From: Acidimicrobiales bacterium
GTDB lineage: Bacteria > Actinomycetota > Acidimicrobiia > Acidimicrobiales > JAHWLA01
Reading direction: 5' to 3'
Assembly (NCBI GenBank): GCA_035536915.1
Contig: DATLNE010000012.1
Location: 1-64,000 of the forward strand
DNA: 64,000 nt
Below, piece after piece: positions 50,064 through 56,245 of this stretch. Under the pieces are notes generated by a model that worked only from the letters and a program-made list of their open reading frames with translations, made no database searches and had not been told where the DNA came from. The position numbers were made by a program, and so were the translations under genes. Every line of letters begins with the position of its first letter. Positions within the stretch are counted from its first letter, which is position 1.

Positions 50064-50741
50064 ATGGGTGAGATCGTCGAGTTTCCGAGCAACGGCACCA
50101 CCGGCCAGGGCTACCTGGCGTTGCCCGAGGCGGGCACCGGTCCTGGCGTCGTGGTCATCCAGGAGTGGTGGGGGCTGGTCGACCACATCAAGGACGTGTG
50201 CGACCGTTTCGCCGCCGAGGGATTCGTCGCCTTGGCGCCCGACCTGTACCACGGCGAGACCACCACCGAGCCCGACGAAGCGGGCAAGTTGATGATGGCG
50301 CTCAACATCGACAAGGCCGGCAAGGACATGGGCGGCGCCGTCGACTACGTGCGTGACCGGGCGGCGGGCCACGGCGTCGGCGTCATCGGGTTCTGCATGG
50401 GCGGCGGCCTGGCCCTGGTGCTGGCCGCGCAACGGCCCGACGCGGTCAAGGCGTGCGTGCCCTTCTACGGGCTCATCCCGTGGCCGGAGGCCCAACCCGA
50501 CTACTCCAGGATCAGCGCCGCCGTGCAGGGCCACTATGCCGAACGCGACGACTTTTTCACGCCCGACCTGGCTCGCGGGTTGGAGGAGCAGCTGGGTGAG
50601 CTGGGCAAGGACGTCGAGTTCTTCCTCTACGACGCCCACCACGCCTTCTTCAACGACGCCCGACCCGAGGTGCACGACCCCGAGGCGGCGGCCACGGCAT
50701 GGGGCCGCGCCCTGTCGTTCCTGCGGGCGCAGCTTGGCTGA
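50064..50741 (+). CDS. Dienelactone hydrolase family protein
   Basis: The 225-residue alpha/beta hydrolase has the DLH catalytic triad: Cys in VIGFCMGGGLAL, Asp in HYAERDDFFTP and His in YDAHHAFFNDARPEVHDPEAA. VVVIQEWWGLVDHIKDVCDRFAAEGFVALAPDLYHG is a family signature. DLH cleaves 4-carboxymethylenebut-2-en-4-olide in chloroaromatic breakdown, but most family members have other, unknown substrates. It overlaps the next gene by 8 nt. Confidence 0.92.
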   Translation: MGEIVEFPSNGTTGQGYLALPEAGTGPGVVVIQEWWGLVDHIKDVCDRFAAEGFVALAPDLYHGETTTEPDEAGKLMMALNIDKAGKDMGGAVDYVRDRAAGHGVGVIGFCMGGGLALVLAAQRPDAVKACVPFYGLIPWPEAQPDYSRISAAVQGHYAERDDFFTPDLARGLEEQLGELGKDVEFFLYDAHHAFFNDARPEVHDPEAAATAWGRALSFLRAQLG

Positions 50742-51915
50742 GCCCGACGTCGTCGAGCGGTACCTCGTCCTCGGGCTCGCCCTGGGGCGTCACATCGACG
50801 GCTTGGTCGACGCCTACTACGGGCCGCCGTCGTTGGCCGAGCGGGCGGCGGCCGAGCCGGTGCGCCCACCGGCTGCGCTCCTCGCCGAGGCGGGGCGGCT
50901 GTTGGCCGACGTGGAAACGTCCGACCTGGAAGCGGCCCGCCGCCACTGGCTGGCCGCCCAGGTGCGAGGCCTGCGCACGGTCGCAGCCAAGCTCGCAGGC
51001 GAGCCCATCTCCTACAGCGACGAGGTGGAGGCGTGTTACGGCGTGCGCCCCCGACGCCTCGACGAAGAGGTGTTGTCGGCTGCCCACCGCAAGCTCGACG
51101 AAGTGCTCCCCGGGTCGGGGCCCGTGCGCGACCGGCTGGTGGCGTGGCGGGAGGCCCAAGCCGTCCCCGTCGACAAGCTCGACGCTGCCATCCAGTCGCT
51201 GGCCGACGACCTGCGGGAGCGCACGCAGCGGCTGTTCGGCCTGCCCGAGGGCGAGCACATCGACTTCGAGTTGGTGAACGACAAGCCGTGGTCGGGGTTC
51301 AACTACTACCTCGGCGGCCTGCACAGCCGGGTGGCGGTCAACACCGACCTGCCGGTGCTGTCGACGTCGCTGGCCCACCTGGTGGCGCACGAGGCCTACC
51401 CCGGGCACCACACCGAGCACTGCCGCAAGGAGGTGGGCTTGGTGCGGCGGCGTCGGCTGGTGGAAGAGACGATCTTCTTGGTGGGCACGCCCCAATGCCT
51501 GCTGGCCGAGGGCTTGGCCGACCTCGGCTTGGAGGTGGTCATGGGGGAGCGCCCGGAGGCGACGGTCGCCGGCCACCTGCACCCGCTCGGCATTCCCTAC
51601 GACGCCGAGGTGGCGGCCCTGGTGGCCGAAGCAGGTGAGGCCATGAGCGCAGTGCGGGGCAACGCCGCCCTGCTGCTGCACGAGGATGGCGCCGATGCCG
51701 ACGAGGTCGTCGACTACCTCAGCCGCTGGGCGCTGCTGCCCGAGCCCCGTGCCCGCAAGGCCGTGGAGTTCCTGTCGGACCCGACGTGGCGGGCGTACAT
51801 GACGTGTTACGTCGAGGGGCTGCCGCTGTGCCGGTCGTACGTGGCGGGCGACCCCACACGGTTCGAGCGCCTCATCACCGACCAGCTCACCCCGGACCAG
51901 CTGCTGGCGAGCTGA
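50734..51915 (+). CDS. DUF885-like putative zinc metallopeptidase
   Basis: The 393-residue protein starts at TTG 50734. It carries the zinc-type motif HEAYPGHHTEHCRKE (HExxPGH) near residue 220, a downstream acidic AEGLADLGLEVV, and NDKPWSGFNYYLGGLHSRVAVNTDLP before it. The HExxPGH form is typical of DUF885, related to gluzincin peptidases. The substrate is not known. The last 29 nt overlap the end of the convergent Fic gene. Confidence 0.78.
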   Translation: MAEPDVVERYLVLGLALGRHIDGLVDAYYGPPSLAERAAAEPVRPPAALLAEAGRLLADVETSDLEAARRHWLAAQVRGLRTVAAKLAGEPISYSDEVEACYGVRPRRLDEEVLSAAHRKLDEVLPGSGPVRDRLVAWREAQAVPVDKLDAAIQSLADDLRERTQRLFGLPEGEHIDFELVNDKPWSGFNYYLGGLHSRVAVNTDLPVLSTSLAHLVAHEAYPGHHTEHCRKEVGLVRRRRLVEETIFLVGTPQCLLAEGLADLGLEVVMGERPEATVAGHLHPLGIPYDAEVAALVAEAGEAMSAVRGNAALLLHEDGADADEVVDYLSRWALLPEPRARKAVEFLSDPTWRAYMTCYVEGLPLCRSYVAGDPTRFERLITDQLTPDQLLAS

Positions 51916-53125
51916 GTTCGCGCTCCAGGTCGGCGAAGGCGTCGATGACGGCCTTGGCCTCGAACGCTCGATTGCGTTTGCCGACGTTCACCTGTTTCAG
52001 CACGCCCGCTTCCAGCAACCGCTCGACGGCGCCGTTGGCCGCCTGGAAGCTGCGCCCGATGAGCTCTGCTGCCCCCGCTGCGGTCACGACGGGGGCGCCC
52101 GGCAGCCGGCGCACGAGCAGGTCGACGGACGAGTCGGCCCGTACCTTGCCGAGCGCCTCGCGCCACTGCTTCTGGATGTCGGCGATGCGTGCTTCGAAGG
52201 CCCGGGCATCGTCGACCGCCTGTCGACAGGCAGCGGCGAACTGGGCGACCCAACTGTTGATGCCGTCGTGGGCTGCTCTCGAATCCGCCCGGCCCCGGTA
52301 GCGCGTGGCGGTCAATCCCTCGACGTAGGACGCGGACGACCGCGCCAAGGCCATCGACAGCGGAGGCAACACACGGGGAGCCACCCCTCGGCGGCGTAGG
52401 ACGACGTGGCTGAGCGCTCTCCCCACTCGGCCATTGCCGTCGGCGAACGGGTGGATCGTCTCGAACTGGGCATGGGCGACGGCGGCCTGGGCCACGGCCG
52501 GAAGCGTGTCGAGGTTGCAGAACGTCAGCAGGTCCTGGACCAGCGGCGCCACATGGTCGGGCGGAGGCGGCACGAAGGATGCCCGGCACGGCGTGTACGC
52601 ACTGCCGCCGATCCAGTTCTGCCGATGACGGAGGCGACCGGCGAACTCCTTGGCCCCGGGGGTGCGGGCCAGCAGCCGACGGTGGACTTCGAGCAGACCG
52701 TCGATGGTGAGGACGGGGGCAGCGGAGAGCGAGTCCACGGCCCACCGCATCGCCTCGATGTTGCCGAGCACCTCTTCCGCGGTTACGTCGTCGGCCGGCA
52801 CCCCCATGCTCAGAGCGGACTCGGCGCGCAGCAGGCGGCGTCCGCCGATCTGCAGCCCCTCGATGTGCGACGACGCCACCGACTCGCTGCGCAAGAGCAG
52901 GCGTGCCAACGCTTCGGTGTCGACCAGCGCGGATGCTTCGAGGTTGAGCCGGGTTATCGCTGCCTCGGCATCGGCGACATCGGCCGCCACGTCGGCGTCG
53001 AGCATCATTCCCCGGCCCACGAGCGGGTCCGGTACGTATGCCTCGTACTCGCACCCGTGCCGGTCGCGACGCGGGAGTCCTGCCGCGGGCGAGGGTGGCC
53101 ACTCCATTCTCAGGACCTTGCTCAT
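51887..53125 (-). CDS. Fic family protein with C-terminal winged-helix domain
   Basis: The 412-residue protein carries the Fic core motif HPFADGNGRVGR (residues about 226-237) for AMP transfer from ATP to a target hydroxyl. The inhibitory-helix motif SSHIEG near residue 85 marks N-terminal self-inhibition (class II). Residues about 330-400 look like a winged helix (APVVTAAGAAELIGRSFQAANGAVERLLEAGVLKQVN). ATG 53125 follows an AAGGAG Shine-Dalgarno that forms the edge of a perfect inverted repeat. The wHTH plus the repeat suggest self-repression. No separate antitoxin gene is seen. Confidence 0.9.
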   Translation of the reverse strand: MSKVLRMEWPPSPAAGLPRRDRHGCEYEAYVPDPLVGRGMMLDADVAADVADAEAAITRLNLEASALVDTEALARLLLRSESVASSHIEGLQIGGRRLLRAESALSMGVPADDVTAEEVLGNIEAMRWAVDSLSAAPVLTIDGLLEVHRRLLARTPGAKEFAGRLRHRQNWIGGSAYTPCRASFVPPPPDHVAPLVQDLLTFCNLDTLPAVAQAAVAHAQFETIHPFADGNGRVGRALSHVVLRRRGVAPRVLPPLSMALARSSASYVEGLTATRYRGRADSRAAHDGINSWVAQFAAACRQAVDDARAFEARIADIQKQWREALGKVRADSSVDLLVRRLPGAPVVTAAGAAELIGRSFQAANGAVERLLEAGVLKQVNVGKRNRAFEAKAVIDAFADLERELSSPAAGPG

Positions 53126-53132
53126 GTCGACT

Positions 53133-53167
53133 CCTTGTTAAAGGTTACATAATAACCTTTAACAAGG
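53133..53167. promoter_or_regulatory. Perfect 15-bp inverted repeat, probable Fic operator
   Basis: CCTTGTTAAAGGTTA (53133-53147) and TAACCTTTAACAAGG (53153-53167) are exact reverse complements with a 5-nt spacer CATAA. The site is strikingly AT-rich compared with its surroundings and ends 8 nt from the fic start, overlapping the fic Shine-Dalgarno and probable core promoter. It also lies about 50 nt upstream of the citE-like -10. Confidence 0.68.
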
Positions 53168-53217
53168 GCTCTCGCCGTTCAAGGTTGTGGGGTTGGCGTC
53201 GCCTGGTTACCGGCTCG

Positions 53218-53223
53218 TAGCAT
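53218..53223 (+). promoter_or_regulatory. Putative -10 box (TAGCAT) of the CitE-like gene
   Basis: TAGCAT ends 7 nt before ATG 53231, a leaderless pattern. Confidence 0.45.
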
Positions 53224-53230
53224 TCCGGGC

Positions 53231-54178
53231 ATGTCCGAACGCACGAGGAACTTGCCCCGCCGGTCCTGCCTCTCGGTCCCGGCTTCGAGCGAGAAGATGC
53301 TCGGCAAGGCGCCCGGCCTGCCCGCCGACATGGTGTTCCTCGACCTCGAGGACTCGGTGGCACCCCTGGAGAAGGAGTCGGCTCGGGCCAAGGCCGTCGA
53401 TGCCATCAAGAACCAGGACTGGGGCGACAAGATCCTCTGCGTCCGCATCAACGCCTGGGACACCAAGTGGACCTACGGCGACGTCATCGAGGTCGTCGGC
53501 AATGCCGGTGAGCGCCTCGAAGAGGTCATGCTCCCCAAGGTGCAGTCGGCCGCCGAGGTCGTGGCCATGGACCTGCTGTTGACCCAGGTCGAGCAGAACG
53601 CCGGCCTGCCCGTCGGCCACATCGGCATCGAGGCCCAGATCGAGACGGCCCGTGGCCTCATCAACGTCGAAGAGATCTGCGCCGCCTCCAAGCGGCTGGA
53701 GACCATCATCCTCGGCCCCGTCGATTTCTCGGCCTCGATGGAGATGCCGTCGCTGTTGGGCGGCCTGCAGATCCCCGAGTACCCGGGCGACTACTTCCAC
53801 TATCCGTTCATGAAGATCCTCATGGCGGGCCGGGCCAACGGCCTCCAGGTCATCGACGGCCCCTATGTGAAGGTCCGCGATCCCGAGGGCTTCCGCGACT
53901 TCTGCACCCGCACGCAGATCCTCGGCTACGACGGCAAGTGGGCGCTGCACCCCGACCAGGTCACCATCCTCAACGAGGTGTTCTCGCCCTCGCAGGAGCA
54001 GTTCGACCGGGCCTGGGCCGTGCTCGACGCCTACAAGGAAGCCACCGAAGGCGCGGAGCGCAAGGGCGCCGTCATGTTCGGTGACGAGATGATCGACGAG
54101 GCCTCGCGCAAGGTGGCCGTGAAGATGGTCAGCCGGGGCGAGCGCGCCGGCCTCAAGCGCACAAACGCGGCCCAGTAG
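53231..54178 (+). CDS. HpcH/HpaI-CitE family CoA-ester lyase (malyl-CoA lyase-like)
   Basis: A 315-residue TIM-barrel lyase: RRSCLSVPASSEKMLGKAPGLPADMVFLDLEDSVAPLEKESAR (Mg-binding ED), VRINAWDTKWTYGDV, MLPKVQSAAEV, IGIEAQIETARGLINVEEI, LGPVDFSASMEMP and GYDGKWALHPDQV. It fits malyl-CoA/beta-methylmalyl-CoA lyases or citramalyl-CoA lyases, which split CoA esters into acetyl- or propionyl-CoA plus glyoxylate or pyruvate. The methylsuccinyl-CoA-dehydrogenase-like gene 2 kb away favours a role in the ethylmalonyl-CoA pathway. Confidence 0.88.
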   Translation: MSERTRNLPRRSCLSVPASSEKMLGKAPGLPADMVFLDLEDSVAPLEKESARAKAVDAIKNQDWGDKILCVRINAWDTKWTYGDVIEVVGNAGERLEEVMLPKVQSAAEVVAMDLLLTQVEQNAGLPVGHIGIEAQIETARGLINVEEICAASKRLETIILGPVDFSASMEMPSLLGGLQIPEYPGDYFHYPFMKILMAGRANGLQVIDGPYVKVRDPEGFRDFCTRTQILGYDGKWALHPDQVTILNEVFSPSQEQFDRAWAVLDAYKEATEGAERKGAVMFGDEMIDEASRKVAVKMVSRGERAGLKRTNAAQ

Positions 54179-54882: not shown

Positions 54883-54906
54883 AACCGTCCTGTGATTCGG
54901 GCGGTT
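54883..54906 (+). terminator. Hairpin after the glycosyltransferase gene
   Basis: AACCGTCC (54883-54890) pairs with GGGCGGTT (54899-54906), 8 bp with one G-T pair and an 8-nt loop. No T-run follows; the hairpin precedes the -10 box of the next gene. Confidence 0.35.
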
Positions 54907-54913
54907 GCGCCGC

Positions 54914-54919
54914 TACCAT
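54914..54919 (+). promoter_or_regulatory. Putative -10 box (TACCAT) of the ASH/DGGIF-repeat protein
   Basis: TACCAT would start a transcript near 54926, giving a leader of about 30 nt that holds a GAAGGGA Shine-Dalgarno before ATG 54956. Confidence 0.35.
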
Positions 54920-54955
54920 CCGAAGTTCACGCGGGGGCACTCGAAGGGACACACA

Positions 54956-56245
54956 ATGAAGCAACGGCGGTATTCGCACGCGAGCGCGGTGGTCGCCGCC
55001 ATCGTCGGCCTCTCAGCGTGGCTCGTGCCGGCCTCGCCTGCGGCTGCAGCAGGCTCCCTCTCGATCGATAGAGTCCACATCGACTTCGGCGCCCAGCGCG
55101 TGGGGACGTACGGGGGCGTCGAGCGCCTCACCGTCACAGCCACCGGGGAAGCCGTCGACATCGAGAGCGTCGACCTGGTCGGCGGCTCGGCCCGCTACGA
55201 CTTCACGCCGGTCGACCCTGTAGACGGTGCGACCGATTGCTGGTCGGACTCGGTCGTGACATTGGCGGTGGGCGAGAGCTGTGTCGTCGACCTCGTCTTC
55301 TGGCCTGACGACGACGGGCGCCGCACGAGCACTCTCCAGTTCGCGACCGACGCCGAGAGCAACCCCTCTCTCCCGGTGGCCGGCTTCGGGACGGTGGGCT
55401 ACTTCATCGCCGGATCGGCCGGCCAGGTCGCCAACTTCGGCGATGCCAACGACCTCGGTGACGTCTCGCACCTCCCGCTGAACTCGCCGATCGTGGGCAT
55501 GGCGGCCACCCCGAACGGCGAAGGCTTCTGGCTGGCAGCGGCCGATGGCGGCGTCTTCGCCTTCGGCAACGCCCGGTTCCTCGGCAGCAAGGGCGGGCAA
55601 CCGTTGAACCAGCCGATCGTCGGCATGGCGGCCACGCCCGACGGCGCCGGCTATTGGCTGGTGGCTGCTGACGGTGGCATCTTCACCTTTGGTACCGCCC
55701 CGTTCCTGGGCAGCAAGGGCGGCCAGCCGCTGAACCAGCCCATCGTCGGCATGGCTGCCGACCCGTGGGGGGCCGGCTACTGGCTGGTGGCCCGCGACGG
55801 CGGCATCTTCACCTTCGGCGACGTGCCCTTCCACGGCTCCAAGGGCGGCCAACACCTCAACCAGCCCATGGTCGCCATGGGGGCCACGCCGACCGGCGAC
55901 GGCTATCACACCTTGGCACTCGACGGCGGCGTGTTCACCTTCGGCGACGCCGAGTTCCACGGCTCCAAGGGCGGCCAGCCGCTCAACGCGCTGATGGTGG
56001 GGATGGCGGAGACCCCGACCGGCCACGGCTATTGGACGGTGGCGGCCGACGGCGGCATCTTCACCTTCGGTGACGCCCCCTTCCACGGCAGCCTCGGCCA
56101 CATCGGTGTCGACGATGTCATCACCATGGCGGGGACCGCGCCGCCTGCATTCCCAGCGATGTTCGGCCTCGCCTCGGCGGCGGCCGCCGATGGCGGTCGT
56201 GCCCCCCGTCAGGTGCTCCCCGAGAGCAGGCGGACGAGCAGTTAG
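54956..56245 (+). CDS. Secreted protein with ASH/choice-of-anchor-like domain and five DGGIF-type repeats
   Basis: The 429-residue protein has a signal peptide ([25 protein letters not shown]). Residues 32-150 look like an Ig-type ASH/choice-of-anchor domain ([39 protein letters not shown] ... [22 protein letters not shown]). Five repeats of about 42 residues follow, with [39 protein letters not shown] as the clearest unit. They match the modules of the protein at 26018. The C terminus is basic and unanchored. ATG 54956 has a GAAGGGA Shine-Dalgarno; the earlier in-frame ATG 54905 would put the signal peptide too far in. Confidence 0.82.
   Translation: [429 protein letters not shown]

What the first reader, a model, noticed from the sequence alone, without database searches (positions are those of the whole stretch)
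53100..53230. Perfect 15-bp AT-rich inverted repeat in front of a self-inhibited Fic-wHTH protein
The arms are identical over 15 bp, AT-rich in a very GC-rich region, and include the fic Shine-Dalgarno. The Fic protein has both an inhibitory motif (SSHIEG) and a C-terminal winged helix. This suggests a self-contained module in which Fic represses its own gene, and AMPylation state could alter DNA binding. The divergent CitE-like gene may be co-controlled.
Basis: partly seen in the sequence, partly recalled or inferred. Interest (0 to 1): 0.6.

Follow-up and report, generated by a model that had tools for sequence, protein, structure and literature searches.

The report
Self-regulating Fic toxin with readable operator
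A bacterial enzyme of the SoFic anti-phage toxin type almost certainly reads a symmetric DNA switch at its own gene: across 95 relatives, one amino acid in its DNA-binding helix predicts one letter of that switch.

Summary
The inverted repeat is real: 53133-53167, two perfect 15-bp arms, 5-bp spacer, 8-42 bp before the fic start codon, unique in the 3.2-Mb genome. It is conserved as a structure. Relatives at 56-68% protein identity carry a repeat at the same distance with different arm letters, including all four base-pair types at mid-arm. An unbiased scan of the whole Fic protein shows that the stretch co-varying best with operator letters is the start of the wHTH recognition helix, above all residue 362. 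The rule Ala/Pro->A, Arg->C, Gln->G, Ser->G, His->C held for 48 of 52 half-sites in new genomes from another class. The repeat is only the middle of a larger operator: four half-sites, symmetric about the same centre, the last reaching into fic codons 2-4. This is autoregulation by a SoFic-type class II Fic protein. One Fic autorepressor, CccR, is known, with a different operator. Self-repression is therefore well supported. Control of the divergent CitE gene is not supported. Modulation by AMPylation was not testable. All evidence is computational; no binding was measured.

The parts
   Evidence: conserved in place among homologues
53176..53186 (-). outer half-site H1, AACCTTGAACG on the - strand
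   Evidence: fixed offset -36 from the palindrome centre, z=6.1 over 95 homologues; genome-wide pattern search
53154..53164 (-). inner half-site H2, TGTTAAAGGTT
53136..53146 (-). inner half-site H3, AACCTTTAACA
53114..53124 (-). outer half-site H4, TGAGCAAGGTC, inside fic codons 1-4 (MSKV)
   Evidence: offset +26, z=6.4; GTT at codon 4 in 20/22 homologues vs 14% elsewhere in the genes
53149..53154 (-). -10-like hexamer TATTAT at the centre of the operator (inferred promoter element)
   Evidence: sequence; TAnnnT tendency at the centre in homologues; no transcription start measured
53131..53136 (-). Shine-Dalgarno AAGGAG, overlapping the palindrome's right arm
   Evidence: sequence
51887..53125 (-). 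fic gene, 412 aa, SoFic-type class II Fic AMPylase
   Evidence: Pfam Fic and Fic_N; PADLOC SoFic E=1e-71
52856..52873 (-). inhibitory motif SSHIEG (residues 85-90)
   Evidence: S85, S86, E89 and G90 invariant in 34 homologues
52418..52453 (-). catalytic motif HPFADGNGRVGR (residues 225-236)
51911..52129 (-). C-terminal winged-helix domain (residues 333-405)
   Evidence: helices 333-343, 349-356, 360-372; wing strands 377-381 and 385-389
52010..52048 (-). recognition helix (residues 360-372)
   Evidence: model; best co-varying stretch of the whole protein
52040..52045 (-). codons of specificity residues Gln361-Ala362
   Evidence: top two single columns of the scan; code

Best explanation
This is the promoter-operator of a self-regulating, self-inhibited Fic AMPylase of the SoFic type. 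The C-terminal winged helix of the Fic protein binds half-sites of the form AACC-TTnAAnA. Four half-sites lie symmetrically about one centre, arranged as two 33-bp units (H1-H2 and H3-H4, each AACCTTnAAnA-N11-TnTTnAAGGTT). The central palindrome is where the two units meet. Residues 361-362, in the first turn of the recognition helix, read the bases next to the GGTT/AACC core; residue 362 reads the base directly beside it. The operator covers a -10-like hexamer, the ribosome-binding site and the first codons, so the bound protein should block transcription of its own gene and keep this toxin-like enzyme scarce. Shown here computationally: site conservation, the specificity code, four-half-site geometry, and a single target in this genome. 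Inferred: actual binding, repression rather than activation, one dimer per 33-bp unit, and low expression as the purpose.
For: In 24 of 26 homologues with at least 55% identity the upstream region beats its shuffles (p<=0.05; 18 at p<=0.01), and the centre is 25 nt before the start in 19 of them. Watson-Crick pairing is 325/405 cells in register versus 76-168 when slid by 1-3 nt; mid-arm pair d=10 takes all four pair types. In a partial Mantel scan over the whole protein the best windows all lie in residues 356-368 (recognition helix), the top columns are 362 and 361, p=0.0005. Table over 95 homologues: A->A 115/120, P->A 12/12, R->C 16/16, Q->G 25/26, S->G 8/10, H->C 2/2, N->T 3/4. Out of sample 48/52. 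On a tree of residues 1-329, independent pairs go the same way 8 times, the opposite way 0 times, p=0.008. Outer half-sites stand at exactly mirror-symmetric offsets, z=6.1 and 6.4, and obey the same code: 36/39 (permuted 20.0) and 51/57 (permuted 37.2), each p=5e-5. GTT at codon 4 in 20/22 versus 14% background. In the host genome the 33-bp unit pattern (up to 3 mismatches) hits only H1-H2 and H3-H4. Model: residues 361-362 lie in the first turn of the recognition helix. Precedent: CccR represses its own gene through its HTH (PMC9755527).
Against: No binding or expression data. Not every homologue shows a recognisable site: 69 of 104 passed the cut, and for example L127 and L188 have none. 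Many changes of residue 362 sit in a few clades; only 8 well-supported independent pairs could be drawn. H4 is weak in this genome (3 mismatches). The -10 assignment is by eye, and the -35 region is not conserved.
Confidence: 0.9

Rival explanations
1. The repeat acts as RNA: a hairpin in the fic leader that sequesters the Shine-Dalgarno (translational control), or a terminator.
For: As RNA the region folds at -24.2 kcal/mol, z=-5, and the arm pairs with AAGG of the Shine-Dalgarno.
Against: Any perfect palindrome folds well. A -10-like hexamer lies at the centre, so the left arm is probably not transcribed. Arm letters track a protein recognition helix. Outer half-sites in mirror places obey the same code, which a hairpin does not need. 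In many homologues the repeat centre lies 35-94 nt upstream, away from the Shine-Dalgarno. No U-tract follows.
Confidence: 0.04
2. The operator belongs to another regulator, and fic is only one target.
For: Divergent promoters are often controlled by unrelated repressors (general knowledge).
Against: Covariation maps to the Fic protein's own recognition helix and not elsewhere in the protein. The site is unique in the genome. Neighbouring genes are not conserved.
Confidence: 0.03
3. The Fic protein binds here but mainly activates, or uses the DNA as an allosteric switch of its enzyme (free monomer AMPylates, DNA-bound dimer does not), with repression secondary.
For: In CbFic2, DNA binding through the C-terminal HTH switches the enzyme towards a deAMPylating dimer (PMC10628234). 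The class II inhibitory motif is invariant in the 34 aligned homologues.
Against: The site overlaps the -10-like hexamer, the ribosome-binding site and the start codons, a position typical of repression. CccR's toxic and regulatory activities were separable (PMC9755527).
Confidence: 0.1
4. The operator co-controls fic and the divergent CitE-like gene as one switch.
For: Only about 105 bp separate the two start codons; H1 ends 44 bp before the CitE start.
Against: CitE is absent beside fic in all other loci, 91 of which hold at least 1 kb upstream. CitE has a plausible leaderless promoter (TAGCAT, 7 nt before its ATG) outside the operator.
Confidence: 0.1

Closest known systems
CccR (YPK_0951) of Yersinia pseudotuberculosis, PMC9755527
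   Same: Class II Fic AMPylase with C-terminal HTH that represses its own promoter through an inverted repeat near -35/-10.
   Different: CccR's operator is AGATAATCAT-N26-ATGATAATCT, 46 nt and two half-sites. Here there are four half-sites in two 33-bp units with a central 35-bp palindrome. CccR is a T6SS effector; no such link was seen here. No specificity code was found in the passages of that paper that I read.
SoFic / EcSofic (PADLOC SoFic; PDB 3EQX, 3ZCN; PMC12249575)
   Same: Same domain order and fold (VIA-align Z 36-37 over about 353 residues); PADLOC SoFic E=1e-71.
   Different: 20% sequence identity in the structural alignment. The defence study reports the C-terminal domain as a regulator of toxicity and a downstream antitoxin AS1; no AS1-like gene was searched for here. 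PMC10628234 states that SoFic DNA binding had not been shown.
CbFic2 of Coxiella burnetii (PDB 8CIL, PMC10628234)
   Same: Class II Fic with a C-terminal two-stranded winged HTH that binds DNA.
   Different: CbFic2 was studied with random DNA sequences, without a defined operator; its reported substrate is host histone H3.
Fic protein of Mycobacterium marinum, PDB 7CB8
   Same: Closest solved structure: Z 45.6, rmsd 2.6, 387 residues, 35% identity.
   Different: Found only as a structure with CDP; no paper on an operator was found.

Membership tests
Class II Fic AMPylases | Core motif HxFx(D/E)GNGRxxR | tested here: met
   HPFADGNGRVGR, residues 225-236, invariant
Class II Fic AMPylases | N-terminal inhibitory helix (S/T)xxxE(G/N) | tested here: met
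   S85-SHI-E89-G90
Class II Fic AMPylases | AMP transfer to a target protein | not testable with these tools
   needs an enzyme assay
SoFic anti-phage systems | Match to the SoFic profile over the whole protein | tested here: met
   PADLOC PDLC03963 E=1.1e-71, residues 26-397
SoFic anti-phage systems | NCBIfam SoFic equivalog cut-off | tested here: not met
   NF046030 56.9 bits against a cut-off of 550: related, not an equivalog of SoFic itself; hence 'SoFic-type', not SoFic
SoFic anti-phage systems | Protection against phage | not testable with these tools
   needs a phage assay
CccR-like Fic autorepressors | C-terminal HTH that recognises the gene's own promoter | tested here: met
   recognition helix-operator covariation and out-of-sample prediction; indirect evidence
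CccR-like Fic autorepressors | Two 10-bp half-sites separated by 26 bp | tested here: not met
   four half-sites, 33-bp units with 11-bp gaps
CccR-like Fic autorepressors | Increased expression when the gene is deleted | not testable with these tools
   needs a reporter assay
Bicistronic Fic-antitoxin (class I, VbhT-VbhA) | Separate small antitoxin gene carrying the inhibitory helix | tested here: not met
   the inhibitory helix is inside the Fic protein

The most novel reading that the evidence does not exclude
The operator is also a sensor switch. Fic dimers parked on the four half-sites are the inactive (or deAMPylating) store, and loss of the site or of intact promoter DNA, for example during phage takeover, both frees active AMPylase and derepresses its gene: a toxin-antitoxin circuit made of one protein and its own promoter, with a specificity code carried largely by one residue.
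Probability: 0.15. Interest if true: 0.85.

Novelty: new variant of a known kind. Interest (0 to 1): 0.6.

Why it matters
SoFic-type proteins are widespread anti-phage AMPylases whose C-terminal winged helix has had no shown DNA target (PMC10628234 says so for SoFic; PMC12249575 treats the domain as a regulator of toxicity). Here that domain is tied to the gene's own promoter by a residue-to-base code that predicts sites in other genomes, and the arrangement recurs in distant phyla: 34 of 79 distant fic genes have a strong palindrome against 2.3 expected, and extra half-sites lie at the same distance in 12 of 37 against 2.7 expected. It suggests that many apparently lone Fic toxins are single-gene autoregulated modules, and it gives one-residue, one-base experiments to test this. 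It also shows an operator reaching into coding sequence, so that codons 2-4 of the enzyme follow its own DNA specificity.

Tried and rejected
RNA hairpin: folds well but does not explain covariation with the helix or the mirror-placed outer half-sites; the G-U versus other mismatch count was not decisive. Co-control of CitE: no conserved neighbourhood. A wider regulon: none found in the genome at up to 3 mismatches. Broadening within single families gave few new homologues, but showed a patchy distribution (3 of 10 and 1 of 6 genomes). Phage records: only distant Fic hits. Searching the wHTH alone against PDB sequences found nothing. The first upstream scan was worthless because loci on the - strand had not been turned; it was redone. 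The repeat finder missed the palindrome; it was confirmed by pattern search and script.

Full report
OBSERVATION. The fic gene runs from 53125 down to 51887 on the - strand; a CitE-like gene starts at 53231 on the + strand. Between them, 53133-53167 is CCTTGTTAAAGGTTA-CATAA-TAACCTTTAACAAGG, two perfect 15-nt arms. Shuffles give none, and its core is unique in the 3.2-Mb genome at up to 3 mismatches. The Fic protein carries the class II inhibitory motif S85-E89-G90 and an intact HPFADGNGRVGR. A confident model (pLDDT 89) has a C-terminal winged helix with recognition helix 360-372. Pfam gives Fic and Fic_N. PADLOC gives SoFic, E=1e-71, although the NCBI SoFic equivalog cut-off is not reached.

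HOMOLOGUES CARRY THE REPEAT WITH OTHER LETTERS. Searches of 296, 397 and 395 genomes of the phylum, order and class gave homologues at 35-68% identity. In 24 of 26 with at least 55% identity the 75 nt before the start contain a 15+5+15 pairing beyond shuffles (p<=0.05), with the centre at -25 in 19. In 27 aligned sites 325 of 405 position pairs are Watson-Crick in register, against 76-168 when slid. The middle pair takes CG 8, TA 8, GC 4 and AT 2 times. So symmetry is kept while letters change. Examples are TTGGAGG..CCTCCAA, TTTAGGG..CCCTA and TTTCAGG..CCTGAAA.

THE FIC PROTEIN READS THE REPEAT. For 69 homologues with a site, I asked which 7-residue window of the whole protein explains operator differences (positions 8-13 from the centre) after removing the overall distance of residues 1-329. 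The seven best windows start at residues 360, 361, 362, 358, 359, 357 and 356, all at the recognition helix; the best columns are 362 and 361; Mantel p=0.0005. The table (95 homologues) is nearly a code for the base next to GGTT: residue 362 Ala -> A 115/120, Pro -> A 12/12, Arg -> C 16/16 in four different sequence contexts, Gln -> G 25/26, Ser -> G 8/10, His -> C 2/2, Asn -> T 3/4. The rule was fixed on the first set and then applied to a different class of the phylum, with site finding that ignored the predicted position: 48 of 52 half-sites were right. On a tree built without the winged helix, 8 independent pairs go the expected way and none the other (p=0.008).

FOUR HALF-SITES. Scanning every offset around the centre for further copies of each homologue's own half-site gave two outstanding peaks, -36 in one orientation (z=6.1) and +26 in the other (z=6.4), mirror images of each other; both persist in the more distant half of the set. 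These outer sites obey the residue-362 rule: 36/39 and 51/57 where the core is recognisable, permuted means 20.0 and 37.2, p=5e-5 each. In the close group the downstream one lies in codons 1-4. With Ala or Pro at 362 it is usually AAG-GTT (Lys-Val), with His at 362 ACG-GTT (Thr-Val), with Gln in two of three CGG-GTT (Arg-Val). The valine codon is GTT in 20 of 22 genes against 14% elsewhere in them. In the host genome itself the 33-bp unit AACCTTnAACA-N11-TGTTnAAGGTT occurs, at up to 3 mismatches, only at 53154-53186 and 53114-53146, the two halves of this operator. The palindrome first noticed is the junction of these units.

MECHANISM. The centre carries a -10-like TATTAT (53154-53149; TAnnnT tendency in relatives), and the right arm carries the Shine-Dalgarno. 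Occupation should block RNA polymerase: negative autoregulation, as measured for CccR (PMC9755527). The 22-bp spacing of half-site centres within a unit (about 75 A, about two turns, same face of DNA) is close to the 70.2 A between DNA-binding helices in the CccR dimer. I therefore infer one dimer per unit and two dimers per operator; this is not shown. AMPylation-dependent binding is open. In CbFic2, DNA binding switches the enzyme to a deAMPylating dimer (PMC10628234).

GENERALITY. Among 79 distant fic genes from many phyla, 34 have an upstream palindrome of score 9 or more against 2.3 expected. Among 37 genes with a strong palindrome, a third half-site lies 27-34 bp from the centre in the predicted orientation in 12, against 2.7 with shuffled flanks (p=0.003). 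These 37 include one of two further fic genes in the window's own genome (L032).

WHAT FAILS. CitE is not a conserved neighbour, so co-control is unsupported. The gene is patchy (56 of 397 genomes of the order at E<=1e-60; 3 of 10 in one family), as expected of a horizontally moving defence or toxin gene, but no mobile element was shown here.

STATUS. Shown by computation: conservation, code, geometry, uniqueness. Inferred: binding, repression, dimer arrangement. Known kind: Fic autorepressor (CccR). New, as far as the papers searched show: autoregulation in the SoFic-type clade, the four-half-site operator reaching into coding sequence, and the residue-base code.

Noticed in passing
L032 (own genome, contig C44 289000-291400): A second fic paralogue (36% identical) has its own different palindrome, CCATTTACGGAAG-N14-CTTCCGTAAATGG, overlapping its start codon; a third paralogue (L033) shows none.
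   Followed up: partly
L006 upstream of fic: Two complete palindromes in tandem (TCCTTATTTCAGGTTA...), each followed by AAGGAG; L204 also has two repeats.
   Followed up: no
window 53190-53231: The CitE-like gene appears leaderless: TAGCAT ends exactly 7 nt before its ATG and no Shine-Dalgarno is visible.
   Followed up: no
window 54905-56245: ORF with several repeats of the form FGxAxFxGSKGGQPLNxPIVGMAxTPxGxGYWLVAADGGIFTFG, a repetitive, probably secreted protein.
   Followed up: no
window 51887-51915: The fic stop overlaps the end of the convergent ORF (50353-51915) by 29 bp, so fic appears monocistronic, with no evident room for a downstream small antitoxin gene on its strand.
   Followed up: no
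L213-L226 (another class of the phylum): A clade with Gln362 has TTGAC a few bases before the left arm at a constant distance from the operator, a likely -35 box.
   Followed up: no
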